The position numbers and the translations under genes were made by a program. The notes under the pieces were generated by a model that worked only from the letters and a program-made list of their open reading frames with translations, was not told the origin of the DNA and did no database searches. This document shows positions 9,524-26,846 of a DNA stretch of 42,132 nt, one piece after another. Source of the stretch: Fibrobacter succinogenes. GTDB taxonomy: Bacteria; Fibrobacterota; Fibrobacteria; Fibrobacterales; Fibrobacteraceae. The stretch spans positions 67,110-109,241 of the forward strand of contig CACWPM010000017.1 of the NCBI GenBank assembly GCA_902762795.1, written 5' to 3'. Position 1 is the stretch's first letter. Each line of letters opens with the position of its first letter.

Positions 9524-9568
9524 ATGGGTAAGTTGAACAGTTTGTGGGGACAATTGGGGCTTATCTAA
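9524..9568 (+). CDS. 14-codon leader ORF coupled to next gene
   Basis: ATG 9524 has GAGG 7 nt upstream (9513-9516) and encodes MGKLNSLWGQLGLI. Its TAA (9566-9568) overlaps the ATG (9568-9570) of the next gene as TAATG. The next gene lacks a strong site of its own, so ribosomes terminating here could restart there. It could be a regulatory leader peptide, or the two frames could be joined by frameshifting. No conservation data are available. Confidence 0.45.
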   Translation: MGKLNSLWGQLGLI

Positions 9569-10299
9569 TGGATTACGTAAGAATAGTTGACGTGTCTCTT
9601 TGCCATGAATATTATAATGGGAGTTCCTGTGGTTTTAAGGTGACGCCGTCTGTTGAAACGGCCGAGATTTTAAAGAAGGAAGAAGCTCTCTGCCGCATTT
9701 ACGATGGAAAAGTGCGGATCATGGCGCCCGTAAATGCATTTGTCAAGGAAACAACGCTCTTCTTTTATATCAAGGCTTCAATTGCCGAAATTTGGAATGT
9801 GACAAATTTTGACGGAATTGCCCACGATGAGTTTCCGGTGGCGGTCGTATGCGATAATGAAGTTTATTTTGATGGGCGTAAAAAGGATTCTATGCCGGAA
9901 TTGCAACGGATGTTTGGCGTCATCTTTGCGCTTGAACTTCATATAAAGCCCAACGACCTGCTTACGTGCACGGTGAAAATCCCGACAAAGAAACTGAGAT
10001 GGTGCTATTGCGTTTCGGGCAATTATGCAGAACGTGATTTGCAGATAAGCGATTCTCTCAAAACGGACGATCCGGTACAGTTCGACTGTGTGGAAAAATC
10101 GTCGCGATTTTCGTTGTACATATCGCGAAGCGAAATTCCGATTGTGAGTGGGGCGCCTCCCAGGTTCCAGCTAAAGGATTCCGCGACTTCGAAAGTGCTT
10201 GTGAAAAGTCTTCCGAACGCGAACGCGAAGTCTATTGCCAAGGCTAGCCTTGACGACGGAACTAGGGCCATTGTCGCAGAATGCTTTGTCAATCCTTGA
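9568..10299 (+). CDS. Unknown protein, possible phage-tail-like cluster family
   Basis: This 243-aa protein reads from ATG 9568 overlapping the leader stop; a GTG at 9544 would add 8 residues within the leader. It has no signal peptide or membrane segment and is predicted beta-rich. From memory the order of features, a Y/F-dG motif early (HEYYNGSS), TPSVETAEILKKEEAL, a middle AELHI-type strand and a late ISRSEIPIV...P segment followed by KVLVKSLPNANAK, resembles a family of unknown proteins found beside phage-tail-like loci. I cannot verify this. The DUF1353 gene follows 108 bp downstream in the same direction. The function is unknown. Confidence 0.6.
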   Translation: MDYVRIVDVSLCHEYYNGSSCGFKVTPSVETAEILKKEEALCRIYDGKVRIMAPVNAFVKETTLFFYIKASIAEIWNVTNFDGIAHDEFPVAVVCDNEVYFDGRKKDSMPELQRMFGVIFALELHIKPNDLLTCTVKIPTKKLRWCYCVSGNYAERDLQISDSLKTDDPVQFDCVEKSSRFSLYISRSEIPIVSGAPPRFQLKDSATSKVLVKSLPNANAKSIAKASLDDGTRAIVAECFVNP

Positions 10300-10407
10300 T
10301 TTTTGCCACTGGATGGCGAATTTGAACAAATCTTCTGCCTTTAATATCGTATCTTTACTCCTATGGCGTCTGCATCATAAATGTAAATAAAGAAAAGAAG
10401 GTGAAAA

Positions 10408-10962
10408 ATGTGCAATCTGAAATCGCTTCTGAACAAACTTAAAGATAAAGTCAATCCTCCCAAAGAGCGGAATTCCATTACGGTGGACGACATCTCGTTG
10501 GATTTTCCCCTTGTATTCGAAGGCAACGGCAAGATGTATTTTATCAAGATGGACCGCTACGTCTATGTCAAGGGTTCTCGCTATACCAAGCTGGACAAGA
10601 AGAGCCGCCCGTTCCTCTTGACCTGCCGTTTCAGGAGAGGCTTCATGTCCGATGGCGCGTCGGCACCCGAGTTCGCGAAGATTTTCGTGCCCGATGTCAA
10701 GAAGGGGGACGATGTTTACAATGCCGCCCCGTTCATTCATGACGGACTTTACATGTATGAGGGCAATATCGATGGCATCAACATGACTCGCGAGGAATGT
10801 GACGATATCCTTCGCGGGATTTGGAGGCTTGCGGGTATGTCCCGCGTCGTTGCTGGCGCTGCTGATCTTGGAATCCATGTTTTTGCCGGTTCGGACGACC
10901 ATTGGGGCAACGATTCCAACAATTGCAAACACCTGTTCGAAGCGAAATTCGAGTATCGTTAA
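10408..10962 (+). CDS. DUF1353 family protein
   Basis: This 184-aa protein has AAGGTG a few bases before its ATG. It shows the DUF1353 signature: a beta-rich N-terminal part, FRRGFMSDGASAP (residues about 78-90), then AAPFIHDGLYMYEG and MTREECDDILRGIWRLAGM. DUF1353 occurs in phages and in bacterial accessory loci, and its biochemical role is not established. The conserved His-Asp in IHDGLY could bind metal, which is speculation. It lies between the unknown 243-aa gene and the HD-GYP sensor, and it is closed by a strong terminator. No signal peptide is seen. Confidence 0.8.
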   Translation: MCNLKSLLNKLKDKVNPPKERNSITVDDISLDFPLVFEGNGKMYFIKMDRYVYVKGSRYTKLDKKSRPFLLTCRFRRGFMSDGASAPEFAKIFVPDVKKGDDVYNAAPFIHDGLYMYEGNIDGINMTREECDDILRGIWRLAGMSRVVAGAADLGIHVFAGSDDHWGNDSNNCKHLFEAKFEYR

Positions 10963-10992
10963 TTTTCATGGCTTGAAAGCGAAAATCTGCGA

Positions 10993-11022
10993 AAATAGCC
11001 CGGAAACGGGCTATTTTTTTTT
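10993..11022 (+). terminator. Strong terminator after DUF1353 gene
   Basis: AAATAGCCCG (10993-11002) pairs perfectly with CGGGCTATTT (11007-11016) around a GAAA tetraloop and runs into a T tract. It ends the leader/243-aa/DUF1353 transcript. Confidence 0.9.
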
Positions 11023-11145
11023 GCTTTTGCGGGGATTGTTCTTACGGAGGTGGTCGAGGGTGCTTTTCGACTGCAATTTTTTTTGAAAAGATGATACAAT
11101 TTTCGTTTAATTTACTTATTATTAGAGGTGAGAAGGATTTTTGGT

Positions 11146-13335
11146 ATGAGAAGATTTGATTTTGAAAAAATGTCCAGTTTCAAGAGCGTCTTGTTGCTGC
11201 TTGTGGGTGGACTGCTGTTGAACATCATCCCAGCGAAAATCGCAATCGCCCTTGGTTTACCGTTGTTCCTGGATTGCACTGGAACTGTACTTACGGCAAT
11301 GCTTGGCGGCTACCTGCCCGCGATTATAGTTGGCTTTGCGCTTAACGCCATTAATGGTATAGCTGATCCGGTCTCGACGTATTATGGCGTCTTGAGTATA
11401 TTGATCGCTATTTTTGCGACGCTTTTTTTCCACAAAAAGTTTTTCAAGAGTGCACTGCGTATTTTTGTCGTGATATTCTCGTTTGCTATTATCGGTGGGG
11501 GGCTGGGATCCATCTTTACGTATTTCCTGTTCGGGTTCAATTTTGGCGAGGGCATTTCCGCTCCGATTGCGATCGCGTTTCACGATGTCATGAACTTTAG
11601 CTTGTTCAAGTCCCAGTTCCTAGCCGATATTGTGATCGACATTTTTGACAAGACTATAATCGTTGTACTGGCGGTCTTCATATTCCACTTTGTTCCCCAG
11701 ACCTATAAGGACCGGTTGAACAAGATTTTCTTGCGAAAGACGGATTCGGGGCGCGGTTTCGGGGGCTCGATGGTCAGCAATTCGCTCTTGCGCAAGGCGG
11801 TCATCATGATGACGATTACTGAAGTGCTTTTGGGAGCGCTTGCGAGTGTCATCGGCTTCTTCCTGTATCGCGAAAAATCGGTCAACAGCTTTATCGAAGT
11901 GGCGAACGGAGCCGCCAAGGCGGCGACTGTTGCAATCGATGCCGAAAAAATTGACGAGTATATCGCTCGTGGTTACGAACTCGAAGAATACAATCACACA
12001 AAATGGGTCCTTGAACGCATTCGTGAAAGCTTCCCGCAGACAAAGTATCTATATGTCTACAAGATTATGGCGGACGGGTGTATTGTTGTGTTCGATGTCG
12101 ATATTGATGGCGTGCCGGGTGAGCCTCCAGGAAAAAAGATTGATTTTGATCCCTCGTTTAGACAACATCTACCGAAGCTTTTGGTTGGCGAGGAAATCGA
12201 TCCGATTATTTCGAATGACCAGTATGGTTGGTTGTTGACGGTCTATAAGCCAATCTACAATGCTGCGGGAAAAGCCGTTGCCTATATTGGGGCGGATATT
12301 GCGATGGAATCCATCAAGAATGACGAGGCCATTTTCTTTATCAAGCTGCTCTCGCTGTTTTTTGGACTTTCCATCCTTATCATGTGTGTCGTTATCGAAC
12401 TTGTAAAACGCCGTGTAGTGGCGCCTCTGAACAGCATGTCTCAGGCTGTATTCCGCATTGCTACGAATACGATGCTTGCAAGCGAGCTTGATGAAAATAT
12501 GGATCTCGGTAAAATTAACAATGCCGTGAAAAAATTAATTGCACTCGACATCCGTAACCATGACGAAATAGGAAAGTTGTACGAAGACGTGAGTACCATG
12601 TCCCGCGATACGTATAACTTTATGTGGAAATCGCAGGAACAGGGCAAGCGGATCCAGCGCATGCAAGAAGTGATCATTATGGAATTCGCCGAGATGGTTG
12701 AAGCCCGAGACAAGAGTACAGGCGACCATATTAAAAAGACAGCCGAATACGTGGAAGCCATCGCTCGCGAACTCCAGGCCGAAGGCAAGTTCAAGGGCGT
12801 TCTCACGGATGCCTATGTCAATAAGCTTAAGCGAGCAGCCCCGCTTCACGATGTCGGAAAAATTGCCGTATCGGACCTGATCTTGAACAAGAACGGCAAG
12901 CTTACCGATGAAGAATTTGCCATTATGAAGAACCATACGACCGAAGGCGGTAAAATCCTCCAGAAAATTGTCGATGAAGCGAAAGGAGCTTTCGATGCCG
13001 ACTATTTGACCGAATCCATCGAAATGGCAAAATACCACCATGAAAAGTGGAACGGTTCCGGCTATCCGGAACGCCTCAAGGGTGAAGAAATCCCGCTTTC
13101 CGCAAGAATCATGGCTGTTGCGGACGTGTTCGATGCGCTTATTGCCGAACGCATTTACAAGAAGGGTTTTAGCTACGAAAAGGCCATGGCGATTATCACC
13201 GAGGGTGCGGGCAAGCACTTTGATCCGGAAATTGTCGAAGCGTTCACGCATATTTCCAGGCGGCTGTATGACGAAAGAACGGTGATTGATTCGGATGCTT
13301 CCCACGAAAATGTATCAGAGAAAAAGCAAGGCTAA
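11146..13335 (+). CDS. Membrane sensor HD-GYP c-di-GMP phosphodiesterase
   Basis: This 729-aa protein starts at ATG 11146 with AAGGA 8 nt upstream; a GTG at 11128 is less likely. Residues about 10-200 are a hydrophobic multi-pass domain (around six helices, with LFLDCTGTVLTAMLGGYLPA) that recalls small-molecule uptake or sensing modules. A further helix, a periplasmic Cache/PAS-like domain (about 245-400) and another helix follow, then a linker and the HD-GYP domain (about 515-720). The catalytic HD is at 568-569 and HHEKWNGSGYP at 631-641, so metal-binding residues look intact. HD-GYP enzymes hydrolyse cyclic di-GMP. The ligand is unknown. It may report an external signal to the accessory region. 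Confidence 0.88.
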   Translation: MRRFDFEKMSSFKSVLLLLVGGLLLNIIPAKIAIALGLPLFLDCTGTVLTAMLGGYLPAIIVGFALNAINGIADPVSTYYGVLSILIAIFATLFFHKKFFKSALRIFVVIFSFAIIGGGLGSIFTYFLFGFNFGEGISAPIAIAFHDVMNFSLFKSQFLADIVIDIFDKTIIVVLAVFIFHFVPQTYKDRLNKIFLRKTDSGRGFGGSMVSNSLLRKAVIMMTITEVLLGALASVIGFFLYREKSVNSFIEVANGAAKAATVAIDAEKIDEYIARGYELEEYNHTKWVLERIRESFPQTKYLYVYKIMADGCIVVFDVDIDGVPGEPPGKKIDFDPSFRQHLPKLLVGEEIDPIISNDQYGWLLTVYKPIYNAAGKAVAYIGADIAMESIKNDEAIFFIKLLSLFFGLSILIMCVVIELVKRRVVAPLNSMSQAVFRIATNTMLASELDENMDLGKINNAVKKLIALDIRNHDEIGKLYEDVSTMSRDTYNFMWKSQEQGKRIQRMQEVIIMEFAEMVEARDKSTGDHIKKTAEYVEAIARELQAEGKFKGVLTDAYVNKLKRAAPLHDVGKIAVSDLILNKNGKLTDEEFAIMKNHTTEGGKILQKIVDEAKGAFDADYLTESIEMAKYHHEKWNGSGYPERLKGEEIPLSARIMAVADVFDALIAERIYKKGFSYEKAMAIITEGAGKHFDPEIVEAFTHISRRLYDERTVIDSDASHENVSEKKQG

Positions 13336-13383
13336 AATTTAACGCCCTTGTAAAAATTTTTTGCAAAATGCCGATACAATAAA

Positions 13384-13410
13384 AGCCAAACTCGAGTTAC
13401 GAGTTTGGCT
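13384..13410. terminator. Bidirectional terminator between convergent genes
   Basis: AGCCAAACTCG (13384-13394) and CGAGTTTGGCT (13400-13410) form a perfect 11-bp stem with a 5-nt loop. T-rich sequence follows better on the minus strand. It sits between the HD-GYP gene and the end of the 1293-aa gene. Confidence 0.85.
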
Positions 13411-13436
13411 GTAATTTATGGTTTCAAGATTTATTT

Positions 13437-16400
13437 TTAAATATTTATAATATTGATTTTATGCTTTTCGATACCGTTTTCGCAAACACTCGCCTCGATT
13501 TTCTTTGTTCCTGCCGGAATGTTGCCTACATGGAATATCCGGTAGCCTTCATCGCCTGAGAGACAATCAAGTTTTGTCGAGAACGCAAGCTCTTCATCGG
13601 TCTTGTAGTTGACTGTATATGACTTATTGTTGTTTGTCGCGTTCAACCATGAAACTTTTAGGAGAATCTTGTCACCAGGTTTCGTTTTTACGAACTTTTC
13701 GTTTGTCTTTTCTTGAGAAACGCGACCAATATTGATTCCGTCTTCTTCACGGTAAATGTCAACGCGCACATTCGCGCCTTGGATGTATGCCCTGATATTG
13801 GACGCTTCATTTGTGCCTGTGGCGATATCCAAATACGTCAAGGGTCTGACGTTTTCTCTATTGGTGAATTCGTTGCTCAAGTCGATTTCTCTAGTGAACT
13901 TGTATTCATTACCCGCAGTGTATTGTTTGTGTCTTTCGCCTAGCGCTTCCCCGAGGATAATTGTATTACGATCGACACTATTTAATTTGACCGTTGCTTC
14001 CCATTTTTGATAGTGGGCGATGTCTCCAAACACACTGGTATTGTCGAGGACGGTTATGGCCTGCCCCTTTCTCATGACCGGTTGGCTGCATTTGGGCATA
14101 TCCAGCGAAGGATTTGTTTCGTAATAATCGCGTTTAGTCAGAACGTACGGACGCTTGCTCCCCTTTATCACGATCCAACGGCCAGGACCTTTTTCATGTC
14201 TAAAAATGTATCCACTCGGGAATACAACCGTTTTCCCGTTGACTGTGGCCAAAAGGTCTTTGCGCAAACGTGCTTTTTTGCGTAACTTCGGGAATTTGGC
14301 ATGGAGGATACCTTTTTGGGGCTTGCACACGTATCGCACGTTCTTGAAGGATGCCGGACCGAACTCTTCCAAGGTTATGCGATAAATCTGGTATTTCCCG
14401 ATTTGCCACCCGGAAAGGATAAACGGGCTGTTTTCCGGAATGATTTCTTGGATAAGCGAAATCGTTTTACTGCATAGGGGGAGGGCCTTGTCCAGATCCT
14501 TAATTGTTTTTTGAGTTTCCCCGAATACATCCTTGAAGTAATCCTGAACGCTGATAGGTTCGAACGTGGCTATGTCATTTTGTGGCAATGCGCGCAAGAC
14601 ATTTTCGCCGTGTTTCGCGTCGTAATTGTAATCGAAATAAGCATAAGTTATTTCGGGCTTGCACATCCAGGAATGAATCAACATTTCTCTATGGAACTGG
14701 CTGCTATTGTAAACGGTTTGTAATTGCTCGCTTGTCGGGGTGTAACCTGCGGGATCTTTCTTTTCATCTCTATCGCATGAGTAGTTGTTCCAACTGTATT
14801 GCGTTGCGATAAATGGGTGTACGCCTATGTTTGGATTGGATAACATAGCCGCTCGGACGTTGTTGATATAGAATTTTAGGCGTGCGAACGGAGTCACCTT
14901 TGGAATGTAAGTTTTCCAGTTGTCCATCGAATCTTTTTCAAAAGCGTCCAACTTTAGCGTGTACAAACTGGGATTGGAGCGCATTCCGGCAGGAAGCTTG
15001 ACTGAACCCCCTAAGTATGTTTCAAATTCATTGCCGTTTTGGTGGTGATTGATGTAGCCGGCCTGGCTATTGACGGAATGCAAGGACCGGATTGCTTTGG
15101 GATAGTAATGACGGATTGGCTTTACAAGATACTTGTCAAGCAATCCTGCGTAGTATTCCATCATTACGCAATCCCAAATGTTGATGTTGCGCCTTCTAAC
15201 GTATGTTTGTGAAGCGTTGTATCCGCTACTGCTCCTTCCATCGCTGAGATTACTGTGTCTGCACGACTTGACATCGTTTAAGAGAATGCTGTTGCCGTTT
15301 TCATCTGTGAACGCGTAGCCTCGTTTTTCTAGGTTATCGTAAATTTTTCGGTAGCTTTCGGTTTCCTTGTCTTTACGGTCATGCAGGCTTTCGCAAATGC
15401 TGTCCCAGACTTGGTCTCTTGTTGCATCCAGTGGCTCTGTCGAGGCTTTGTCGTCCCTTATATAAAAACCTCGCTGGACGATTCTGATTTCGTTTGCCGT
15501 ATTGCGCATACCTTCGAAGTCGCAATAAATGAAATCTACTTCGATGTGATAACGTTTTTGAAGCTTTTCGAATATCTTGTCTAGAAGATTTCGCAAGGCT
15601 TCGGCACCGGAAATGGGACCATCCGTATTGTCATCGCTCCTGACATTCTTGTTTGTATAAAGTTTACGGAGCCGTTCGCAATAATCTTGCTTTATGGACG
15701 CGTCGACATCCTTGATTTTTGGATTATCGTAGTGAATAGGTGCATCGTAAAAAATGTAGCCGTCGCCACAAAGCCCCTTTTGCTCGCTATCCTCGAAATA
15801 GACCATGGAATGGAGAAAATTCTTCTGTCTCTTGACGAAAATGCAGTCATTTATATATTCATTATATTTTTGTAATTGTTCCGGATCGTTGTCTTCGGGT
15901 TTATCTACTGCTTTCTTGGTCGTCTTTATCCTGTCGGCGATTTCAATCGCTCCACCAAAAAGCTGCTCGAAAACGTCTCCCTCAATGGACACGCTACGAC
16001 GTCCGCGCGGCTGTGCAAATAGAGCACGGGCCAATTTTCTTGCAGCTTCTTCTGGGGAAACCGTTTCCAAACTGTCTAAGTTCGGATAAATCTCTTGCAA
16101 AGAGTAGCTGTCGAATAAATTTGGATATTTGCTATGACGATTGAATTTTTTAAGATTTTCTGGAGCGTTTTCTTTCAGCTCGCTGTTGAATTCAGAACCG
16201 TAATACTTTTCCGGTTTGACAAGACCGTTTTGGAACCAGAGGAATACATCTTTCTGGTTGTTGATCTTCTTGAAAACCGGAACCTGTAATTTGAATTTCC
16301 CGCGAATGTCATAATGCCTTCTAACGTGACTGAGCAATTGATTATATCTTGCTTCGTTAAAACTCGGTTTGAAGAAGTAATCTAAATCACCACTAATAAA

Positions 16401-17318
16401 TGCTTCATAGGCAAAATTCCGCTCAAGAGTCTGTTTGAGCTTTAGCTCAAAACAAATGGCTTCAAATTCGAGAAAATCTTTCCCATTATTCTTGACTTTT
16501 TCCATTGGGACTGTTTTCCACAAACATAGTCCTCCGCCCACGGGTTTTCCGTTTTGCGTAATCCTTCCCGGTATAATCATTGAGCGGACAAGTAAATCTC
16601 CATCGTAAAGGGCTTCTGCAACAGGATTTTCGAAAAAGACCATTTTGTTCCTGTCTGCATAATTAGAACAAAGTTCTATTTTGCTATCGACTTCGCTAGG
16701 AACGTATTTGGAGACTACTGCTACATATAAAGTGTTTTTTGTGTAATCTAAATTGAAAAAATTGTTGGGTATCGCATATTCTTTAGCGGGAGCGTATTCA
16801 GAAATGCTGTCAAAGAAATACGGAATATAATGCAATCCGATTTTTGAAACTTCGATTTGTGATGTCCCCGGGGTGACTCCTATGCTCGAAATATCTATTT
16901 CCGGGGTGGCTGATATTTCTTTGTTCTTTTCGGCATAGTAAAAGCCTGCGATAGGCCACTTGCGCAACCTTTCGTTTAATCCGCTTGGAAGATCTTCATT
17001 GTTGTTTTTTATTTGTAACGCCTTTACATATTCATCGAGTTCAAAGAAGTAAACATAGTAATCGGGAGTTCCATTTCTTTTGTAAAAATAGCCTGCACTG
17101 TTGAAAAGATGATTTTTGATAAAGTATTTGTGATTCAAATTTTCTGACGAACTGGCCTTTAGTTCTTCAAGACGAAAAATTTTGGGAATGTTTAAATCCT
17201 CGGGAAATACGGAAAACTTGGGATCGATTAACTCCTTTGTACCGTCTGTTGGAACGATATGTTGGCCTATGATATCCTTGATAGGGCTTGATGTGATTTT
17301 GGTTGTATTTTGTTGCAT
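13437..17318 (-). CDS. Giant unknown protein, possible glycosidase-like core
   Basis: This 1293-aa protein starts at ATG 17318 with AGGA upstream. There is no signal peptide and no transmembrane segment. Residues about 1-450 are mixed alpha/beta with no recognised domain. Residues about 560-900 have a rhythm of strands ending in acidic residues (HIEVDFIYCDFEGMRN, then HPFIATQYSWNNY, then KPEITYAYFDYNYDAKHGEN). This could be a TIM-barrel hydrolase, but no family is identifiable by eye. The C-terminal 200 residues look like beta-sandwich binding modules. It is the third gene of the minus-strand cluster, after a 116-aa gene and a partial terminator. It is AT-rich relative to ruvAB, which may indicate transfer. 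Confidence 0.75.
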   Translation of the reverse strand: MQQNTTKITSSPIKDIIGQHIVPTDGTKELIDPKFSVFPEDLNIPKIFRLEELKASSSENLNHKYFIKNHLFNSAGYFYKRNGTPDYYVYFFELDEYVKALQIKNNNEDLPSGLNERLRKWPIAGFYYAEKNKEISATPEIDISSIGVTPGTSQIEVSKIGLHYIPYFFDSISEYAPAKEYAIPNNFFNLDYTKNTLYVAVVSKYVPSEVDSKIELCSNYADRNKMVFFENPVAEALYDGDLLVRSMIIPGRITQNGKPVGGGLCLWKTVPMEKVKNNGKDFLEFEAICFELKLKQTLERNFAYEAFISGDLDYFFKPSFNEARYNQLLSHVRRHYDIRGKFKLQVPVFKKINNQKDVFLWFQNGLVKPEKYYGSEFNSELKENAPENLKKFNRHSKYPNLFDSYSLQEIYPNLDSLETVSPEEAARKLARALFAQPRGRRSVSIEGDVFEQLFGGAIEIADRIKTTKKAVDKPEDNDPEQLQKYNEYINDCIFVKRQKNFLHSMVYFEDSEQKGLCGDGYIFYDAPIHYDNPKIKDVDASIKQDYCERLRKLYTNKNVRSDDNTDGPISGAEALRNLLDKIFEKLQKRYHIEVDFIYCDFEGMRNTANEIRIVQRGFYIRDDKASTEPLDATRDQVWDSICESLHDRKDKETESYRKIYDNLEKRGYAFTDENGNSILLNDVKSCRHSNLSDGRSSSGYNASQTYVRRRNINIWDCVMMEYYAGLLDKYLVKPIRHYYPKAIRSLHSVNSQAGYINHHQNGNEFETYLGGSVKLPAGMRSNPSLYTLKLDAFEKDSMDNWKTYIPKVTPFARLKFYINNVRAAMLSNPNIGVHPFIATQYSWNNYSCDRDEKKDPAGYTPTSEQLQTVYNSSQFHREMLIHSWMCKPEITYAYFDYNYDAKHGENVLRALPQNDIATFEPISVQDYFKDVFGETQKTIKDLDKALPLCSKTISLIQEIIPENSPFILSGWQIGKYQIYRITLEEFGPASFKNVRYVCKPQKGILHAKFPKLRKKARLRKDLLATVNGKTVVFPSGYIFRHEKGPGRWIVIKGSKRPYVLTKRDYYETNPSLDMPKCSQPVMRKGQAITVLDNTSVFGDIAHYQKWEATVKLNSVDRNTIILGEALGERHKQYTAGNEYKFTREIDLSNEFTNRENVRPLTYLDIATGTNEASNIRAYIQGANVRVDIYREEDGINIGRVSQEKTNEKFVKTKPGDKILLKVSWLNATNNNKSYTVNYKTDEELAFSTKLDCLSGDEGYRIFHVGNIPAGTKKIEASVCENGIEKHKINIINI

Positions 17319-17347
17319 TTTTTTTATCCTAATAAAAAAATATGAAA

Positions 17348-17375
17348 AGCCCCAAGAAAGAGATTTCTTGGGGCT
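17348..17375 (-). terminator. Intracluster terminator or attenuator
   Basis: AGCCCCAAGAAA (17348-17359) and TTTCTTGGGGCT (17364-17375) form a perfect 12-bp stem with a 4-nt loop. On the minus strand TTTTCATATTTTTTT follows. It lies between the 116-aa gene and the 1293-aa gene and may reduce, rather than abolish, expression of the latter. Confidence 0.85.
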
Positions 17376-17386
17376 ATATCTTGTTC

Positions 17387-17737
17387 TTACTTATCGAGAA
17401 GTTTTGTTAACAGAGATGAAACGATGGTATTTGTCATCTCTGGAGCAAAACTAGTCGGAAGTCCCAAAGCAGAGGAAACGATTTGCATAAGCATGGATTG
17501 AATTTCGTCTGCTTTTGCAGCTTTTTTAGCTTCCAAATCGGCAAGTAGATTATAATATCCTCCAACTTCTGTAATATTTTTAGGAACGGGGATTCTTGTT
17601 GCTTTTACTTCTGTTTCAAGTGCTGCTCGTAACAAAAGTAGTTGCCTGATTTTTTGCATTTCTTCAGATTCGTTATTTGACAAGAGTTTTTCGATTAAAC
17701 TCTGAAATGCTGTTGTATTGGTTATAGATTCAGACAT
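17387..17737 (-). CDS. Small helical protein of unknown function
   Basis: This 116-aa protein has AAGGAG about 8 nt before its ATG and starts 23 bp after the stop of the 1605-aa gene, so the two are almost certainly cotranscribed. It is largely helical: an N-terminal amphipathic helix (SLIEKLLSNN), a central helix rich in Leu and Ala, and a hydrophobic C-terminal helix pair ending SSLLTKLLDK. There is no signal peptide and no Cys. It could be an adaptor or chaperone for the giant proteins on either side, judging only from position and size. Confidence 0.7.
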   Translation of the reverse strand: MSESITNTTAFQSLIEKLLSNNESEEMQKIRQLLLLRAALETEVKATRIPVPKNITEVGGYYNLLADLEAKKAAKADEIQSMLMQIVSSALGLPTSFAPEMTNTIVSSLLTKLLDK

Positions 17738-17760
17738 GTTATGATTCTCCTTGAAAATTC

Positions 17761-20700
17761 TTATTTACCATTTGAGGGGGGGGTAGTTGGATTGTTTTTT
17801 CCGTTGTTATCTTTGTCTGTACTGCTTTTCTTTGTGTCGCTACTATTGCCACCACCAAGTTTAGAAATTGCTTCGATTATTTCTGGTGTGAGTTTATCTG
17901 TGTTGTATTTTGTATTGCCATTTTCGTCATCTTCTTCTGTTATGAATTTATCAAGAAGATTGGATTGCATTCCTCCGCCGGTGTAGTATGCTACAACAGC
18001 GTCGGCAACAACCTTGGCTGCGTCAACAGATGTCTTAAGTGCGTTGTTTGTTAAATCCATACCCTTTTCAAGAGCGTTCTGTGCACTTTCTGTACCCTTG
18101 TTGAGGACATCCTTCAATTGGTCAAGACCTGTCAAGTTGCCAAAGTCAGGACGAGCCTTTTCGCGGAGCTCCTTGAGCAAGTCAGGAGCTGTTACAGATG
18201 TAGGTGCTGTTGCCGATTCAATGTTCAGCGGTGTTATGCTGCTTGTGTTCTTGCCTTGCAAGTAATCTGTATTGTTGAGGTAATTGTTAGAAAGTTCCAT
18301 TTTGTCAATTGGAGAATCCTGCCAGTTCCAGAATCTTGTGAGATCGATCTTTTCGCTGACATTTGTTTCTCCAAGAACAGCTTCGCCAACCATGCCATCT
18401 GTTGGCAGGGAGATGACTGTTGTGGGTACTCTGAAATGATTCGTATGGTAACGATACAGTGCGTCTTGCAATTCGAATGCGGTCTTTCCGAGTCTCTTGG
18501 CAAGCTTTTCTGGGTATGTGAAGGGGAACATCATGCAGTTTCCGTAGAAACCGAGCATCTTTTTGACATCAATGCAGTTTAACAACGGGATATCATCATA
18601 GGTTGTACCCTCTGTTTCTTCGATATCCTTGAAGTTCATGTCAATGGTGTATTTTTCCAACATCAAAGCTCGTTCATCTGCGGACATGGCACGCCATACG
18701 GCTTGAGAATAGCGCATTGTGTGCGACGCGATGTGGTGCATTGTGTCTTCGATTTTTTGTTGTTCCTTGACAGAAATTGTTGGAATTTCAGAATCAAGAT
18801 AGATGTACGTGTAATTTGTTAAGTTGTTGGATGATGTTTTGCATGTTAGATCGGCATTTCCTAAGCTTGCCGAGATGCCTCCACTTATGTAGAGATCCAT
18901 TAAATTGTTGCTCGACAAGTAATTTTTTCCCCAAGAAATATTGGGATTTCTCCAGGCTTCCAAATATTGGAACATCTTGAAGAAGTTGTCTCCGTATAGT
19001 CCGGTATGTTTTTCTGGATTTTTTGAAAGAGTGTATTCAAAATTGCTGCAGTTGTGAATAAGCTTGATATAGGATATATCACGAGTTGAAGACACTGCGT
19101 TATAGAAATCACAGGTGCAAGTATATTCGTTACCGTCCAATCTGCAATTCTTAATTTCGTTTCTAACTTCTCCAGAGGTCTCAAGACCGTCTTTAATTAC
19201 AGTGCCGGTTAAGCTAACGTCTTGGCAGTATATTGTAGTTCCGTTCTTCAATACCAAAATTGCCGAAATCTTGTCAAAAGACATGAATTTTGCTTTGAAT
19301 GATATCCGAAGATTCTGTGCCTTTTGTTCTTTTGAATCAATAGCGAAGTTGGAATAGGCACAATACTGTTTTGCTAGATCTAATCCGCTTCTGTACTTGT
19401 ATGGAAGGGCTGGACGTAGGGCGTCATAATGTTTAGATAGTAATTCGTATCGCTCCTTGAATCCATTAACGTTTAATTCATTTTCGATTTGATAGGGTTT
19501 ACAATTTAGGAAACTGATCATTTCCATCGGGACAAAAAGAATGAGATCCACATTCTCGATGCAAGTCTGAAGCTTGTAGCGTCTCATAACTTCCCAATAC
19601 TGAATTGTCATTGCGTGGGAATGATTATGGTTTGCAATAATTTTAGTTGAAACTGCGTCAGATTCCTCGCTTGAAGCAGTCTTGATAAGAAGTCTGCTTG
19701 CTTGAGAAATCTTTTCTGATGCAGCCTTGATTGCGTTTTGGAAATTCCTTGCAGCGCCAGATGCTTCATTGTAGTTGTTTGCTTGATGTGCATGGGATTT
19801 TCCAGAACCACTAGAACTAGATTTGCTAGAATGTCCACCGACGAGGCCTAAGAATCCTCCGCCACAAGAACGACTTGAGGATGAGGCTCCGTAGGAATAG
19901 TCGGAACTTCCATCGGATATCTGGGATATGGCTTGGTTGTAAGCTTCCGTTGTTTTTTGCGTTTGGCCACTTTGATAGCTTTCTGCCGTTGAATCGATTC
20001 CTTCTTGCTGATCGATAACTTCATAGCTTTGTTTTTGTTCTCGCAAAATTAAACGTTGTTCTTCGCCTGGAGCCAAAATTGTAGAATACAAAAGTGTTCC
20101 GAGCGAGAATCCGTCTGGGACCCAGGCTTGATGCATGTTCAATGCATAACCAATCCCGAGAGAACTCATGTGAGGAATTGAGTTTGGATTGTCTTGGAGA
20201 TTTTTCTTAAATGTCGTAATATCGATTGCTTTGTTTAAGGAAATGCGCGGCTTATTGGCAGACGCTTCTTCTGGCAGCGGACTGATTGCTGGTTCCACGA
20301 GTCTTTGAATCATGGAATAGTTATATACTTCCGATGGCGCTGTATCGGTGGGCAAGTAAAGCGAATTCCCGTTATTCTCGATAAATTTAACGCTAGGGAG
20401 TAATTTGTTTTCTTTTTCGGAATTGTTGATGAATGTCGCTTTGTCAATGACGAAAAGCGGATGTTCGGTGTCTTTGCCGATTTCTGTTTCCCATCCCGTA
20501 TCGTTCAGCATGTTTTCTATAGCGATGTAAAGATTGCTTGCTTTGCTTGGATCTTTGAGTTCGCTTTTGATTTTGAGGTATTCTTGGCACAGATTGTATT
20601 TTTTCTTGTTTTCTTCTGTGTCCTTTTTGTTAAATTGTTCGATGTCGGATTCGTTTTCGAACTTGAGCTCGGCGCGGATATCGTACAGTCTGTTGAGCTG

Positions 20701-22578
20701 TGTGAATGTGTTGAGTGTCTCTTGGTCGACTCCGTTTAAGAATTCCGTTGCGCTGACGGTAAAGCTCTTGCTGCCTTTTTTATTACCTTCACCTCTTGTA
20801 AATGTGAATGTGAGGGCGTCCTTGAGGTTATAACCTGTTGGAAGCGTGATTATGAATCTACCGTTTGCATCGGTGTATCCCTGAGGCTTTGGAGCATTGA
20901 CTTCATCGTTTGACGGATCTACGATACCGTCGATTTCGACGAGGGCTCCTGAGAATCCCTGGGTGTTTCCATTGGAGTCAACGATGTTGGTGTTTCCATT
21001 CGAGTCCATTTCGTAAACATAACCGATGACTCTTTTCGGCAAAGGCATTTCTTGTTCGACATCGCGGAGGAAACCAAGTCCTTTAGCGATGACTTCTGCA
21101 TTGTTGACTGCTTGGGTTGCAATTTCTGATTCTAGTTCATTTCCGTTTACAAAAAGGTGTATCGGAGCAGGTTCATCAACTTCAATTGTCGTGTAGAATA
21201 TGAACTTGTTTAGATTTAACTGCTCTTTAACATTGTCGAGTTTATCGCGAAGGGTTCTAAATTTACTATCACTTTTGACCCGATTGTCGTTTAAAAGTTC
21301 CTCGATATTGGCAAAATGGGTTGCCAATATTCTGTCGTGACTTGTTTGCCGTCTTACGAGGTTCGTGAGTATTTTTTTTGCATTTGCAATAATATCTTCG
21401 AGTCTGGATCTTGTTATGAGCTTGTATTCAGGTTGAGCTCTGTCCAGTGATTCCATCAAAGGATACACTTTGTTCGGATCCAATTTTTTCACATCGTCTA
21501 CATAGCGTACACCCAATCGTACGAGCATATCGGCCGAATCGGGATCCATCAATGTGATTCTCCACAGATCAATTTGCTTTGTCCAATATGTGAAGTTGTT
21601 GTAGTAAGTTTCAAGGGTGTTGGCTGGGATTCTTATTTTTTCATTTTCGTTTAAGGGAAGAGCGCCTTTTTTCTCTAATAAATAAAGTTTGGTGGCCAAT
21701 CTTGTTCTGTTGGCTATAGTCTTGCCTTCTGTAAGCAAATCTGCTGGTGATTTTATGCCAAGAACGGCTAAATTTTTAACTCTGCTTTCATCGAGTCCTT
21801 TGACTTTTATGAGCTCTTGTTGACTCTCTGATAATCCTGGAATTACTACTCCTATTGGCTCAAGCGGGGGTGTAACGATTGGAGCGGGTTTTCTGAATCC
21901 TGGGGCCGTTTCTGCTGGGGTAAATTCAATGCGACCGATTGGTTCGAGTTTTCCGAGTTGTTCTCTTATAAAGTCGATGTCTTCGATGCCGAAATGCTTT
22001 CTGATGAACTTTTGTTCTTTGTTGAGGAAATTTCGGAATTCAGTGTCGTATTTATCTTTGTAGTAACTGAAAATCTGGTCCGGTTTTAAAAGAGCTTCCT
22101 TTAGTTCAATGCCGGTAACATCTTTAAACAAATCGGCTTTCTTGGAAAGGATATCCTTAATTTCTAATTTGTGTATCTGGATAAATTCTTGAGCTTTGCT
22201 TGCTATGATCTTCCCGTTGTTGTCGAGAAGATCGTTTGTTTTGAGAAGCCCAGGAATTCTATTGTTTACCCAGTTTCTGTCATTTTCGATGAAATTTTTG
22301 AATCCTGCGGGATCTTGTTCAATTGCATTCTTTAAAACGTTTTTATCGAACTTATTCGATGCATCAAGTATTGCAAACGATTGCAATCTATTGTTTTCAA
22401 CTACTAGTTTGTTGTAATCTTCCCTGGCTACAAGCCCAAGGCCTTCTATAGCAGGCTCCTTAAGCTCATTTGTGTGTTCTGAAAAGAATTTTAAAAAATT
22501 TTTTTTGTCTAATGTTCCGTCTTCTCTTCGCAGAACAATATTATCGAAAATAACTTCACGAGAAAGTCTTTCAGGCAT
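17761..22578 (-). CDS. 1605-aa multidomain protein of unknown function
   Basis: ATG 22578 has AAGGAG upstream. No signal peptide is present. Residues about 268-300 and 350-404 resemble helix-hairpin-helix/DUF4332 modules (NLAVLGIKSPADLL; MLVRLGVRYVDDVKKLDP). Residues about 515-600 look like a carboxypeptidase-regulatory beta-sandwich (GALVEIDG, GYTDANGRFIITLPTGY). A core begins around 800 with SLGTLLYSTILAPGEEQRL, a Ser/Gly-rich insert (889-932) and TIQYWEVMRRYKLQT (991-1005). Around 1390-1426 comes SLPTDGMVGEAVLGETNVSE followed by FWNWQDSPID, a pattern I recall from large uncharacterised bacterial proteins. A low-complexity hydrophilic tail ends the protein. It leads the minus-strand cluster. 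The function is unknown. Confidence 0.8.
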   Translation of the reverse strand: MPERLSREVIFDNIVLRREDGTLDKKNFLKFFSEHTNELKEPAIEGLGLVAREDYNKLVVENNRLQSFAILDASNKFDKNVLKNAIEQDPAGFKNFIENDRNWVNNRIPGLLKTNDLLDNNGKIIASKAQEFIQIHKLEIKDILSKKADLFKDVTGIELKEALLKPDQIFSYYKDKYDTEFRNFLNKEQKFIRKHFGIEDIDFIREQLGKLEPIGRIEFTPAETAPGFRKPAPIVTPPLEPIGVVIPGLSESQQELIKVKGLDESRVKNLAVLGIKSPADLLTEGKTIANRTRLATKLYLLEKKGALPLNENEKIRIPANTLETYYNNFTYWTKQIDLWRITLMDPDSADMLVRLGVRYVDDVKKLDPNKVYPLMESLDRAQPEYKLITRSRLEDIIANAKKILTNLVRRQTSHDRILATHFANIEELLNDNRVKSDSKFRTLRDKLDNVKEQLNLNKFIFYTTIEVDEPAPIHLFVNGNELESEIATQAVNNAEVIAKGLGFLRDVEQEMPLPKRVIGYVYEMDSNGNTNIVDSNGNTQGFSGALVEIDGIVDPSNDEVNAPKPQGYTDANGRFIITLPTGYNLKDALTFTFTRGEGNKKGSKSFTVSATEFLNGVDQETLNTFTQLNRLYDIRAELKFENESDIEQFNKKDTEENKKKYNLCQEYLKIKSELKDPSKASNLYIAIENMLNDTGWETEIGKDTEHPLFVIDKATFINNSEKENKLLPSVKFIENNGNSLYLPTDTAPSEVYNYSMIQRLVEPAISPLPEEASANKPRISLNKAIDITTFKKNLQDNPNSIPHMSSLGIGYALNMHQAWVPDGFSLGTLLYSTILAPGEEQRLILREQKQSYEVIDQQEGIDSTAESYQSGQTQKTTEAYNQAISQISDGSSDYSYGASSSSRSCGGGFLGLVGGHSSKSSSSGSGKSHAHQANNYNEASGAARNFQNAIKAASEKISQASRLLIKTASSEESDAVSTKIIANHNHSHAMTIQYWEVMRRYKLQTCIENVDLILFVPMEMISFLNCKPYQIENELNVNGFKERYELLSKHYDALRPALPYKYRSGLDLAKQYCAYSNFAIDSKEQKAQNLRISFKAKFMSFDKISAILVLKNGTTIYCQDVSLTGTVIKDGLETSGEVRNEIKNCRLDGNEYTCTCDFYNAVSSTRDISYIKLIHNCSNFEYTLSKNPEKHTGLYGDNFFKMFQYLEAWRNPNISWGKNYLSSNNLMDLYISGGISASLGNADLTCKTSSNNLTNYTYIYLDSEIPTISVKEQQKIEDTMHHIASHTMRYSQAVWRAMSADERALMLEKYTIDMNFKDIEETEGTTYDDIPLLNCIDVKKMLGFYGNCMMFPFTYPEKLAKRLGKTAFELQDALYRYHTNHFRVPTTVISLPTDGMVGEAVLGETNVSEKIDLTRFWNWQDSPIDKMELSNNYLNNTDYLQGKNTSSITPLNIESATAPTSVTAPDLLKELREKARPDFGNLTGLDQLKDVLNKGTESAQNALEKGMDLTNNALKTSVDAAKVVADAVVAYYTGGGMQSNLLDKFITEEDDENGNTKYNTDKLTPEIIEAISKLGGGNSSDTKKSSTDKDNNGKNNPTTPPSNGK

Positions 22579-23097: not shown

Positions 23098-23126
23098 TTG
23101 ATAAAATAGACGAAAATTACTATATT
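23098..23126 (+). promoter_or_regulatory. Sigma70-type promoter of tRNA-Arg
   Basis: TTGATA (23098-23103) and TATATT (23121-23126) are exactly 17 bp apart. The predicted start near 23133 is about 9 nt before the tRNA. Confidence 0.7.
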
Positions 23127-23141
23127 CGCTTGCGCTTATGA

Positions 23142-23214
23142 GCCTGGTTAGTTCAGATGGATAGAACGAGTCCCTCCTAAGGATTAAACTCGCGTTCGAC
23201 TCGCGAACCGGGTA
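23142..23214 (+). tRNA. tRNA-Arg (anticodon CCT)
   Basis: A complete cloverleaf can be drawn. The acceptor GCCTGGT pairs with ACCGGGT (two G-U pairs). The D stem is GTTC/GAAC. The anticodon stem AGTCC/GGATT has loop CTCCTAA, giving anticodon CCT for AGG codons. The variable loop is AAAC. The T stem TCGCG/CGCGA has loop TTCGACT. The discriminator base is A at 23214 and no CCA is encoded. It has its own promoter and terminator, and it lies between two giant accessory genes. No duplicate of its 3' end was seen in the window. Confidence 0.93.
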
Positions 23215-23223
23215 TAGCAGAAG

Positions 23224-23252
23224 AGCCTCCTACTTTGTAGGGGCTTTTTTTT
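23224..23252 (+). terminator. Terminator of tRNA-Arg transcript
   Basis: AGCCTCCTAC (23224-23233) pairs with GTAGGGGCT (23237-23245), with one bulged base, and is followed by a long T run. Confidence 0.85.
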
Positions 23253-23477
23253 GTGTTTTGTTTTTATTTGATTTTGTTTAGAATACGTTTTCATAAAAGA
23301 AAGCAAAAATATGTTTTTTTTCTAAAAAAAATAAAAGTGTAAAAATAATATTATCATTATATGTAAATAAAAATAAAATTATGTGTAAAAGTATCATATT
23401 TTGATAATCTTTTTGTAATTTTGTCGCCAATGTTACAAATAACATTGAATTGAAAACAAAATACCAGGAGATTGTTT

Positions 23478-26400
23478 ATGGCTACTTTGAAAAATGCCGC
23501 TCAACTTAAAGCGAACTTGAATGGGAACCGAACTCAAAATGATTTGAAAGTTTCGACAACTCAATTGAAGGAAAAGGAGATTGTTGGAAAAAAAAATTCT
23601 GTAGAAAGTTTAAAAATAGAAAAGGTTACGACTATTAAGGAACCGGTTCTTAAAAAGCCTGTAGATCTTGCCAAGGGTGTTCGTGTTAGCTTGAATGATA
23701 AACGTTTTGTAGATTTTTCTGCAAATAATAAAATTACCAAGCTTGAGTTTAATTTACATGGTCTGTCTAGAGATGATGCTCGAAATTTATTTAATTCATT
23801 GAATGAACGGCTGAGAAATATTGATGCCAGTATAGAAATGAGAGCTATGGCTGCGTTTAGACGGATTATGGAGAATAGGGAATATTTAGACTATGCAGGA
23901 CCTAAAACGGGTCTTGATCTCTTAGTAAGCCCTCTTGGGGGTATTGATTGCGGTTATATTGTGACAACGGAAGGTCGTTACTCATATAGATTGCTTAAGA
24001 AAAAAAATATTATTCTTGTGAAAAAGAACATTACTACTGTAAAAACAAACAATTTGTTGTCGAATAATCGTGTAGCAATTGTTTCTGGAGAACAATATAA
24101 AGACTGGGAAGAGATTGATAAGGTTGAAAATGTTTATCTAAACTCTGGTCATGGCTTTATCTGTAATGATAAGGATGTGAAAGAAGGATTTAGATATTCA
24201 TATTGCTTAGAATTGAAAAATGAAAATAATGGTCTGATATCATATTATGAAAAAGAAATTTTGTATGAAAAACTGATTATTAAAGCAAGCTTTTCTGCTA
24301 AGCCGGATCCTTATGAAAAACGGGTTTGCTTATATTGCAATGTGGAAAATTATAGTGAGTTGAAAATTTATCGAAAAGATAATGGCAAAGATTTGACGGA
24401 TGCTCTAGAAGATAAAAATGTTGCTTTAGGTGGTCGATATGAGTATGTTTTAGAGGCCTCTAATTATTGGGATCCTGTAAAATTGACTGCGAAAGTTGAT
24501 TGCTCGGGCTTGAATCCTGTTCTTGTTGATAAGAATATTTCATATGTTCTAGAAAAGTTTGATAAGGGTGTTTCGTTAAGTTGGACTTCTGCCAAAAGTG
24601 ATTATAAATGTGTTATTAAGAGAAAAAAAGAAAAATCTACATCTTGGGAAAATATTTATGAGAGTAGAATATCCGATACTTCTAGATCTGATCATTTGTA
24701 CAAAGATATTAGCTCATCTTTGGAAAAAGGCGCTGTGTACAATTATGTAATTTATTGTTCCAATGGTTGGGGTGAAGATGCATCAAATGTTATTTCAATT
24801 TTGATGGATAATTCTGTTCCGCAAAGACCTCGATTGTTGCCAACATCGGATAAATTACTTTTTACTTGGGTAAAGGATGATCTTGCAAAAGAATATGTTA
24901 TTTATAGATATGATGATTCTTTAATGAAAAATTTGAATAATATAACGTATAATAAAATGATTTCTATGCCCAAATATGCTCCTAGTTATAGGGCTGTTGA
25001 TATTTCAAAAAATGTTTTGTATACATATAAGATTGTAGCGCGTAATGGCTGGGGTGATTCTGAACCGTGTTATTATGATGTTTTTGATAACGTAAAAGGA
25101 AATCTGGATGGATATTTGAATAATTCTTATTTTTATAATGGTCAATTAGAAAAAATTGATACGGAATGGACTGATGATTTTCAGGGCATTACAACGGATG
25201 GAAAATACTGGTATTTGACTAATGGGTCTGGCTATGCTGCGTTGCGTAAATTCTCTGTTCGTGATTCGATGAGACGAAAAACTCCTAATTTTCATTTGTC
25301 TGGTATTGCAGGGGCTAAGCCTAAAGGGTATGATAATAAAAAAACATTTAATGGTGAAGTTTCTTATTGGCTAATAGAAGATAATGGATGTACATTATTC
25401 TATACTGAATATGCTAAACATTTTGGAGATTTATCGTATTATAAAAATTATTTGTTTATTCCGGCTTATGATGGTAAATTGGCCTGTGGTGAAATTTGGA
25501 TTGTTGATTCAGTCTCGTTAGAACTTAAACATAGGGAACCTTTAAAAGATAGATTTGGAAATTGCTTAAGTGATTTAGGATGGTGCGCCATTAATCCATG
25601 TGATGGAAGATTGTATACTACAAATGGAGCTTTGAATGGCTTTTTATATTCCTATCGGATAAATATAAATAATATTGGCTCAGCTAAAAATGTATTTGAA
25701 TTTGCACAAACTGTATCTTTGTATGATGAAAAAGGGTCTGTATTCCCTATAAAAAGCTGTATGCAGGGAGGTTGCTTTGATTATTACAATAATATCTATT
25801 TGAATAGTGGATATTATGAAACGGAACGTAGACCTAATGAAGGTGTTCATGTTTTTAAGTTGATACCTGATAGATCTGTTGTTGTTGACAAAATAAATGC
25901 GAGCGAAACAACGGATAGCGGAAAAACTAAGGAATACGAAAGATTTTTATCGGGTGATTTGCAAGTTCCTATTGAAAATACGAAAGGTGTATTGATTTCT
26001 TATTCAACTCGTGAACATACTGATTCAAATAATAATTTTGTTTATCAAGTATCTCATGGTGCAGTCTCTTATCCGACAAGCGTAAAAGATTTCTTTGGAA
26101 TATTTGTTGGCGATCCTTGGGAAGGAAAAATTGAAGTGATTGGGGAGGAACCGGAAGGTTTGGTGTATTATGATTTCAAGAGCGAGAATGGTGCTTGGAG
26201 ACCATATAGTAGTGCGACATATCAATCTTCTCTTCATATCAGTTTGCTTGATAATGAGCTCGATAAAGGTTGTATTGACATAAATGATCAGCTGTATATG
26301 AAAGAATATTTGCATACATATAGAGAAACAGAACAAAAGAGTATTTTTTATAGGCCTTTGAACTTGAAAGTTGTTGCTGGCGATTCAAATAATGATTGGA

Positions 26401-26846
26401 AAGTAGTTGATGGTGGAACTCTTGTAAGAAAATTTAAATCATCATCTGTTGCGAAAAATGCTGTGAAAATTTTAAAATATTTTGATAGAATTCATACCAT
26501 TGGTTGGCTGTATACGAGTTCTCCTAATCATAATTATGAATTTAGTGTTGGATTGAATTATAGTGGTTCTGTTCCTGATTATGGACAGAAAAAAATTACT
26601 TATGATGGAAAACAGTTCAATTCTATAAAGGAGGATAATCTTTATAAAGCGGGTGATGAACGATGTGTGGTTAGATTGAACGCTCTTGATGGTCGTAATT
26701 ATTATTTCTTGGCTCATAATTTACAAGATGCTCGCAAAATAGTGGATCTCCTGAAAAATTACAATAAAATTTGCTACATCGGTGTGGGTCCTGATAGTGA
26801 TGGTCGCATCCGTAGCGATTACAATTTAATTTGGTTGGAAAAATAA
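23478..26846 (+). CDS. Unknown 1122-aa protein with FnIII and propeller-like regions
   Basis: ATG 23478 is preceded by AGGAG with a 7-nt spacer; the frame could open at TTG 23472 without that support. There is no signal peptide. After a Lys-rich N-terminus and a helical segment, residues about 250-540 contain two or three fibronectin-III-like repeats, each ending in an (N/S)GWG(E/D) strand. Residues about 550-800 resemble a beta-propeller (DFQGITTDGKYWYLTNGSG; HFGDLSYYKNYLFIPAYDG). The C-terminal 220 residues hold two related modules (about 960-1035 and 1045-1122), each with an FxxxxxAxxAVxILKxFDxIxxIG-type helix-strand unit. The coding sequence is the most AT-rich in the window. A binding, lectin or adhesin-like role is plausible, but the export route is unclear. 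Confidence 0.75.
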   Translation: MATLKNAAQLKANLNGNRTQNDLKVSTTQLKEKEIVGKKNSVESLKIEKVTTIKEPVLKKPVDLAKGVRVSLNDKRFVDFSANNKITKLEFNLHGLSRDDARNLFNSLNERLRNIDASIEMRAMAAFRRIMENREYLDYAGPKTGLDLLVSPLGGIDCGYIVTTEGRYSYRLLKKKNIILVKKNITTVKTNNLLSNNRVAIVSGEQYKDWEEIDKVENVYLNSGHGFICNDKDVKEGFRYSYCLELKNENNGLISYYEKEILYEKLIIKASFSAKPDPYEKRVCLYCNVENYSELKIYRKDNGKDLTDALEDKNVALGGRYEYVLEASNYWDPVKLTAKVDCSGLNPVLVDKNISYVLEKFDKGVSLSWTSAKSDYKCVIKRKKEKSTSWENIYESRISDTSRSDHLYKDISSSLEKGAVYNYVIYCSNGWGEDASNVISILMDNSVPQRPRLLPTSDKLLFTWVKDDLAKEYVIYRYDDSLMKNLNNITYNKMISMPKYAPSYRAVDISKNVLYTYKIVARNGWGDSEPCYYDVFDNVKGNLDGYLNNSYFYNGQLEKIDTEWTDDFQGITTDGKYWYLTNGSGYAALRKFSVRDSMRRKTPNFHLSGIAGAKPKGYDNKKTFNGEVSYWLIEDNGCTLFYTEYAKHFGDLSYYKNYLFIPAYDGKLACGEIWIVDSVSLELKHREPLKDRFGNCLSDLGWCAINPCDGRLYTTNGALNGFLYSYRININNIGSAKNVFEFAQTVSLYDEKGSVFPIKSCMQGGCFDYYNNIYLNSGYYETERRPNEGVHVFKLIPDRSVVVDKINASETTDSGKTKEYERFLSGDLQVPIENTKGVLISYSTREHTDSNNNFVYQVSHGAVSYPTSVKDFFGIFVGDPWEGKIEVIGEEPEGLVYYDFKSENGAWRPYSSATYQSSLHISLLDNELDKGCIDINDQLYMKEYLHTYRETEQKSIFYRPLNLKVVAGDSNNDWKVVDGGTLVRKFKSSSVAKNAVKILKYFDRIHTIGWLYTSSPNHNYEFSVGLNYSGSVPDYGQKKITYDGKQFNSIKEDNLYKAGDERCVVRLNALDGRNYYFLAHNLQDARKIVDLLKNYNKICYIGVGPDSDGRIRSDYNLIWLEK

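What the first reader, a model, noticed from the sequence alone, without database searches (positions are those of the whole stretch)
9524..26846. Accessory island centred on three giant, signal-less proteins
Between the leader ORF and yciO lie unknown proteins of 243, 1293, 116, 1605 and 1122 aa, DUF1353, an HD-GYP sensor and a tRNA-Arg. The giants are AT-rich, have good Shine-Dalgarno sites, lack signal peptides and carry modular beta-rich regions. A divergent LuxR-TPR regulator and a YiiX-like protein border it. This is the best candidate for a coordinated undescribed assembly or effector system.
Basis: partly seen in the sequence, partly recalled or inferred. Interest (0 to 1): 0.72.

Follow-up and report, generated by a model that had tools for sequence, protein, structure and literature searches.

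The report
Undescribed two-gene cassette in Fibrobacter
Two of the giant-island genes (a 1605-residue protein and the 116-residue protein right after it) form a conserved, undescribed gene pair found in many bacterial phyla and probably some archaea, sometimes with cell-wall or protein-cutting enzymes beside it; the other "giants" nearby are unrelated Fibrobacter genes.

Summary
The observed genes are real, but the island is not one system. In about 100 related genomes, the 1293-aa (C), 1122-aa (D) and YiiX-like genes occur independently. An intrinsic terminator separates C from 1605/116. A related genome has the whole locus without A, B or C.

What holds is the 1605 + 116 pair (A-B). In 66 of 69 A loci with enough downstream sequence, B follows on the same strand. 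A and B co-diverge (Mantel r about 0.8). A pattern scan found 232 A loci in 84,980 species genomes, from Bacteroidota to Actinomycetota plus one methanogen MAG. None were found in phages or viral contigs. No Pfam, NCBIfam, PHROGs, PADLOC or PDB sequence model explains the A core or B. No N-terminus tested looks like a signal peptide.

Models of A show a beta-sandwich, a long beta stalk with a Gly/Ser-rich tip, and a PLAT/C2-like lipid-binding domain. In the gut-anaerobe clade, signal-less amidase, NlpC/P60-like, papain-like or transglutaminase-like genes sit between A and B or just after B. The tree mixes phyla, which points to transfer.

Best reading: a mobile, membrane-engaging two-protein device that can carry hydrolases. 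The pair is firmly established; the mechanism is inferred.

The parts
17761..22578 (-). A: 1605-aa giant, first gene of the conserved pair
   Evidence: ATG, AAGGAG Shine-Dalgarno
17387..17737 (-). B: 116-aa obligate partner, 24 bp after A
   Evidence: conserved motif RIPxPxNITExGGYxNLL
17543..17596 (-). Signature motif of B (RIPVPKNITEVGGYYNLL, residues 48-65)
   Evidence: alignment A2
17348..17375 (-). Intrinsic terminator (12-bp stem, 6 GC pairs, T-rich tail) ending the A-B unit before C
   Evidence: consensus match only
21373..21603 (-). DUF4332 (helix-hairpin-helix) region of A, residues 326-402
   Evidence: Pfam E 1.3e-5, above cut-off
20410..21045 (-). N-terminal beta-sandwich of A (residues 512-723)
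   Evidence: model, VIA Z 6-7 to transthyretin-like and dioxygenase folds
19528..20157 (-). Long beta-strand stalk with Gly/Ser-rich tip (residues 808-1017; LAPGEEQR and NHNH..QYWEV motifs)
   Evidence: tip pLDDT under 50
18793..19338 (-). PLAT/C2-like lipid-binding domain of A (residues 1081-1262)
   Evidence: VIA Z 8.7, ranks 1-36 all PLAT-type chains
18310..18735 (-). C-terminal signature block of A (YSQAVW, GFYGN, GEAVLG, RFWNWQDSP; residues 1282-1423)
13437..17318 (-). C: 1293-aa Fibrobacter protein, separate unit, not part of the pair
23478..26846 (+). D: 1122-aa Fibrobacter protein, independent of the pair
23142..23214 (+). tRNA-Arg(CCT), conserved at this locus in G001
11128..13335 (+). 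HD-GYP sensor, locus backbone gene
10408..10962 (+). DUF1353 protein, locus backbone gene
7705..9048 (-). LuxR-TPR regulator, locus backbone gene

Best explanation
Shown: genes A (1605 aa) and B (116 aa) are one copy of a conserved, horizontally exchanged two-gene cassette. A is a large protein with a conserved ~800-residue core; B is its constant partner. Family-wide, neither shows an N-terminal signal. In the gut-anaerobe clade, signal-less peptidoglycan- or peptide-hydrolase-like genes are sometimes inserted between A and B or placed directly after B. Inferred: A and B form a cytoplasmically made, membrane-engaging complex. The PLAT/C2-like domain docks on lipid, the long beta stalk with its Gly/Ser-rich tip inserts into or bridges a membrane, and B holds or caps A or attaches cargo. 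The complex is released by lysis or an unknown route, acts on neighbouring cells, and escorts the hydrolases where they exist. In the window no such cargo is present; C is a separate unit.
For: Pair: 66 of 69 A loci with at least 700 bp downstream encode B on the same strand, 60 of them directly adjacent. Perfect A/B co-occurrence in about 100 related genomes. Mantel r 0.81, and 0.72 and 0.83 within the two clades, 0 of 2000 permutations as high. Transfer: tree with starred branches mixing phyla; the G018 Fibrobacter A groups with Ruminococcus, and their downstream genes share a ~45-aa N-terminal domain, E 3e-10. Cargo: Amidase_2, NLPC_P60-like, Transglut_core and DUF6765 neighbours. Membrane engagement: PLAT-like domain, VIA Z 8.7, Foldseek prob 0.99-1.00 to PLAT-bearing lipases; Gly/Ser/Ala-rich tip. 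No signal peptides.
Against: About half or more of the gut-clade loci and nearly all environmental loci have no cargo, so hydrolases are optional. No immunity or secretion gene recurs nearby. The stalk tip has pLDDT under 50. Resemblance to pore-forming toxins was weak (TM 0.03-0.12) and largely vanished in the second, domain-sized model. PLAT is a fold match and shows no function.
Confidence: 0.33

Rival explanations
1. A-B is an envelope or surface scaffold: A binds lipid or wall through its PLAT, Ig-like, tectonin or OmpA-type domains and B anchors it, with hydrolases remodelling the producer's own wall.
For: Accessory domains that bind surfaces: Big_2 in G018, Tectonin in Streptomyces, OmpA fusion in Psychrobacter, PLAT-like domain. 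Cargo acts on peptidoglycan.
Against: No export signal in any of 69 A proteins. Patchy, phylum-crossing distribution is unusual for housekeeping wall biology.
Confidence: 0.25
2. A-B is an intracellular membrane-acting conflict device (for example anti-phage, abortive type): A damages the cell's own membrane when triggered and B restrains or assembles it.
For: Two-gene, mobile, signal-less, membrane-binding; the Polaromonas plasmid copy sits near TIR, PIN, DUF262 and type I restriction genes.
Against: No PADLOC model matches. Among 101 neighbours, defence matches are few and scattered.
Confidence: 0.2
3. The whole island (243, 1293, 116, 1605, 1122 aa and regulators) is one coordinated system.
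For: Adjacency in this window; G018, the other A-carrying genome of the set, also has a D relative on another contig.
Against: C, D and YiiX distributions differ from A-B; terminator between B and C; G001 and G038 hold parts of the locus without A-B.
Confidence: 0.04
4. A-B is a remnant or accessory of a phage tail or contractile injection system.
For: Large, modular, signal-less proteins with hydrolase neighbours resemble such gene clusters.
Against: No relative in phages or IMG/VR by the searches run; sheath family PF04984 absent from 36 of 45 A-carrying genomes, including this one.
Confidence: 0.05

Closest known systems
PLAT/LH2 (C2-like) domains, e.g. the C-terminal domain of clostridial phospholipase C, lipoxygenases and pancreatic lipases
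   Same: Residues 1081-1262 of A take this fold (VIA Z up to 8.7; the 36 top-ranked chains are all PLAT-bearing proteins).
   Different: Sequence identity is only 5-16%, the domain sits inside a giant protein with no matching catalytic domain, and no Pfam PLAT match is made.
Beta-barrel pore-forming toxins (aerolysin, lysenin, Ib/CDTb families)
   Different: TM-scores 0.03-0.12, no shared domain order, and not reproduced as top hits in the second model.
Polymorphic toxin / effector cassettes with variable hydrolase cargo (PMC3482391, title and abstract only)
   Same: Constant module plus variable neighbouring peptidase- or amidase-like genes; shared N-terminal domain on different enzymes.
   Different: Cargo is encoded as separate genes, often absent, with no immunity gene or known secretion marker seen.
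Extracellular contractile injection systems
   Same: Patchy, cross-domain distribution and signal-less effectors (own knowledge).
   Different: No sheath gene in 36 of 45 carrier genomes, and no tail genes adjacent.

Membership tests
PLAT/LH2-type lipid-binding domain | Eight-stranded PLAT beta-sandwich fold | tested here: met
   Predicted domain, pLDDT mostly over 90, VIA Z 6.0-8.7 to about 40 PLAT chains, then a drop
PLAT/LH2-type lipid-binding domain | Lipid or membrane binding | not testable with these tools
   Needs a binding assay
Beta-barrel pore-forming toxins | Amphipathic beta-hairpin stem in a recognisable pore-former fold | tested here: inconclusive
   Weak hits in model 1, not on top in model 2; tip pLDDT under 50
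Beta-barrel pore-forming toxins | Oligomeric membrane pore formation | not testable with these tools
   No assay possible
Contractile injection systems | Sheath/tube/baseplate genes in the genome or cluster | tested here: not met
   PF04984 absent in G000 and 36 of 45 A-carrying genomes
Known anti-phage defence systems (PADLOC) | Match to a defence model | tested here: not met
   No match at E up to 0.1 for A, B, C, D, the 251-aa protein or DUF1353
Polymorphic toxin / effector systems | Constant module with variable toxin domains | tested here: inconclusive
   Variable hydrolase-like neighbours in a minority of loci
Polymorphic toxin / effector systems | Adjacent immunity gene | tested here: inconclusive
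   No recurring small partner other than B; unclustered immunity genes would be missed

The most novel reading that the evidence does not exclude
A-B is a new, widely exchanged two-protein membrane-translocation device, made without a signal peptide and independent of contractile machines, that carries interchangeable wall- or protein-cutting enzymes docked through short N-terminal domains, and is shared among gut Bacillota, Bacteroidota, Fibrobacterota and methanogens.
Probability: 0.2. Interest if true: 0.88.

Novelty: categorically new. Interest (0 to 1): 0.62.

Why it matters
A strictly paired gene cassette in at least 232 loci across species genomes of many phyla has no Pfam, NCBIfam, PHROGs, PADLOC or solved-structure relative for its conserved core and no paper found here. 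If it delivers hydrolases, it would be a new way for gut and soil microbes to act on each other or on their own envelopes. It is directly testable because several carriers are cultured non-pathogens (Ruegeria, Butyrivibrio, Novosphingobium, Streptomyces).

Tried and rejected
- Pfam, NCBIfam and PHROGs for A-D: nothing beyond DUF4332 in A.
- PDB by sequence or profile: nothing meaningful for A or C.
- Viral contigs and phages: no relative of A.
- Contractile-system link: rejected by the sheath survey.
- Defence-island idea: neighbours scanned against PADLOC, few and scattered matches.
- A constant third gene near A-B: none. An apparent shared neighbour (389/597/610 aa) is probably the common Fib_succ_major family, found in 2 of the 101 neighbours.
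- Long-B C-terminal domain as a swapped part of A's N-terminus: no match.
- Pore-forming toxin membership: only weak, model-dependent similarity.
- C as A-B cargo: rejected by the terminator and by its distribution.
- C could not be folded: the tool takes at most 1200 residues and relatives from the genome search are not accepted. A catalytic, glycosidase-like reading of its conserved motifs (DFExMRNTA, HxWxCxPE) is by eye only.
- Literature: searches on eCIS/Fibrobacter, tectonin, T6SS/Fibrobacter, PLAT/pore-forming toxin, DUF4332, Fibrobacter islands, accession numbers and effector/rumen/amidase terms found nothing on this pair.
Full report
Setting. The window lies in a 3.93-Mb genome, G000. 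Its genus is Fibrobacter: the same-genus genome G018 contig C61 (50,054 bp) is the record JAGCGO010000049.1 of Fibrobacter sp. RGIG9772, with the A gene at the same contig position. I call the 1605-, 116-, 1293- and 1122-aa genes A, B, C and D.

The island is not one system. In the same sample of 101 genomes, A and B are each found only in G000 and G018. C is found in five genomes, none of which except G000 has A. D is found in twelve and the YiiX-like gene in sixteen. G001 keeps LuxR-TPR (62%), the 243-aa gene (83%), DUF1353 (78%), HD-GYP (66%), a D relative (36%), tRNA-Arg(CCT), yciO (94%) and the downstream operon (84-97%), but has no A, B or C. G038 has C next to the same HD-GYP gene without A-B. 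A 12-bp-stem terminator lies between B and C, and another follows C. C is therefore its own unit. D lies on opposite sides of the tRNA in G000 and G001. C and D have relatives only in Fibrobacter within the sample.

The A-B pair is real and widespread. tblastn on plasmids found A relatives in Ruegeria, Novosphingobium, Streptomyces, Polaromonas, Embleya and Haladaptatus. In Ruegeria and Novosphingobium the next gene is a B relative. A scan of 84,980 species genomes with two short patterns found 232 relatives of A; the best 80 gave 75 loci, from Bacillota, Bacteroidota, Fibrobacterota, Pseudomonadota, Actinomycetota, Planctomycetota, Nitrospirota and others, plus a Methanosarcinales MAG. By six-frame HMM search, 66 of the 69 A loci with at least 700 bp downstream have B on the same strand. 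The three without are divergent plasmid copies (Streptomyces, Polaromonas, Psychrobacter). A and B distances correlate at r = 0.81 over 58 pairs, and at 0.72 and 0.83 within the two clades, with 0 of 2000 permutations as high. B is short (85-182 aa) in most anaerobe-clade loci and long (about 310-530 aa) elsewhere.

Transfer. The A-core tree has two main clades; the 33-row gut clade mixes Bacillota, Bacteroidota, Fibrobacterota, a methanogen MAG and Pasteurellaceae. Starred branches force at least two changes for Fibrobacterota. The G018 A groups with two Ruminococcus copies (100/95). The genes after B in G018 (188 and 530 aa) share a ~45-aa N-terminal domain with the 550-aa gene after B in Ruminococcus flavefaciens L065 (E about 3e-10 and 2e-7), although the remainders differ. 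This suggests that the pair moves together with its neighbours. MAG binning can misplace contigs, so single MAG placements are not proof.

Neighbouring enzymes. In five gut-clade loci one or two genes lie between A and B: Amidase_2 (L036 twice, L054), NlpC/P60-like (L045; the related L058 399-aa gene), and papain-like proteins by motif (L058 480 aa, L078). After B come a transglutaminase-like protein (L065), an NlpC-like protein by motif (G018 530 aa), an amidase plus DUF6765 (L074) and a related set with hydrophobic stretches (L056, L067, L092). A neprosin peptidase precedes A in Novosphingobium and a subtilase in a Nitrospirae locus. Many loci have no such gene. Among 101 neighbours, Amidase_2 is the most frequent family (3) besides integrase, SLH and helicase-type domains; no constant third gene exists.

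What A looks like. No curated family matches A's core. AlphaFold2 on residues 500-1600 with 66 relatives gave pLDDT 70.6 and pTM 0.58. The parts are a beta-sandwich (512-723), long strands 808-860 and 962-1017 with a tip of pLDDT under 50, a domain at 1081-1262, and a conserved C-terminal block. The tip is enriched in Gly (14.5% against 6.9%) and Ser (24% against 11%), with a hydrophobic centre in most members (39 of 67 reach a 19-residue hydropathy of 1.0; the window's own copy is only 0.4). A second model of residues 798-1270 confirmed the 1081-1262 domain as PLAT/C2-like: Z 8.7 to clostridial phospholipase C C-domain, with the 36 top-ranked chains all PLAT-bearing, then a drop. I treat them as a lead only.

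Topology. None of 69 A or 53 B N-termini carries a hydrophobic segment typical of a signal peptide. The phage sheath family is absent from 36 of 45 carrier genomes including G000, and A was not found in phages or viral contigs. The pair therefore does not depend on a contractile machine, and its route out of the cell, if any, is unknown.

Verdict. Established: A-B is a conserved, mobile, undescribed two-gene cassette, and C, D and the flanking genes do not belong to it. Inferred at about one in three: a membrane-engaging complex that can escort hydrolases. Main rivals are an envelope scaffold and an intracellular conflict device. 'Categorically new' refers to the gene pair, for which no known family or paper was found here; its working principle may turn out to resemble known effector or pore systems. 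Literature coverage was limited to open-access papers.

Noticed in passing
L119 (Psychrobacter plasmid) 5253-10523: An A relative of 1756 aa carries a helix-hairpin-helix match at its start and an OmpA-like match after the conserved block, and has no B: a possible fusion variant.
   Followed up: partly
L118 (Polaromonas plasmid) 6036-9647: A relative without B close to an integrase, PIN, TIR and type I restriction genes.
   Followed up: no
BFVD A0A5K0U6Q4 (Yasminevirus): Foldseek match to the A model (E 2.4e-5, 16% identity): a giant virus may hold a relative of A.
   Followed up: no
L034 5496-6704 and L035 10752-11981: D relatives in G029 and G001 have a 402/409-aa neighbour (about 40% identical to each other) that is missing beside D in the window.
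   Followed up: no
L028 and L032: A C-terminal fragment of C in G038 is 96% identical to the G048 copy, and nearby genes share near-identical N-terminal ~160-aa stretches: signs of recent recombination.
   Followed up: no
window 28239-28401: Heptanucleotide tandem array (CTTCCAA-type, 23 copies) downstream of yraN-like; other 14- and 34-bp arrays at 4567-4633 and 4870-4990.
   Followed up: no
L042: Methanosarcinales MAG contig with two tandem A genes followed by one B.
   Followed up: no
L036 2988-4355 and L074 16538-17782: DUF6765 proteins (weak zinc phospholipase C similarity in one) sit beside the A-B cassette with amidases in two loci.
   Followed up: no
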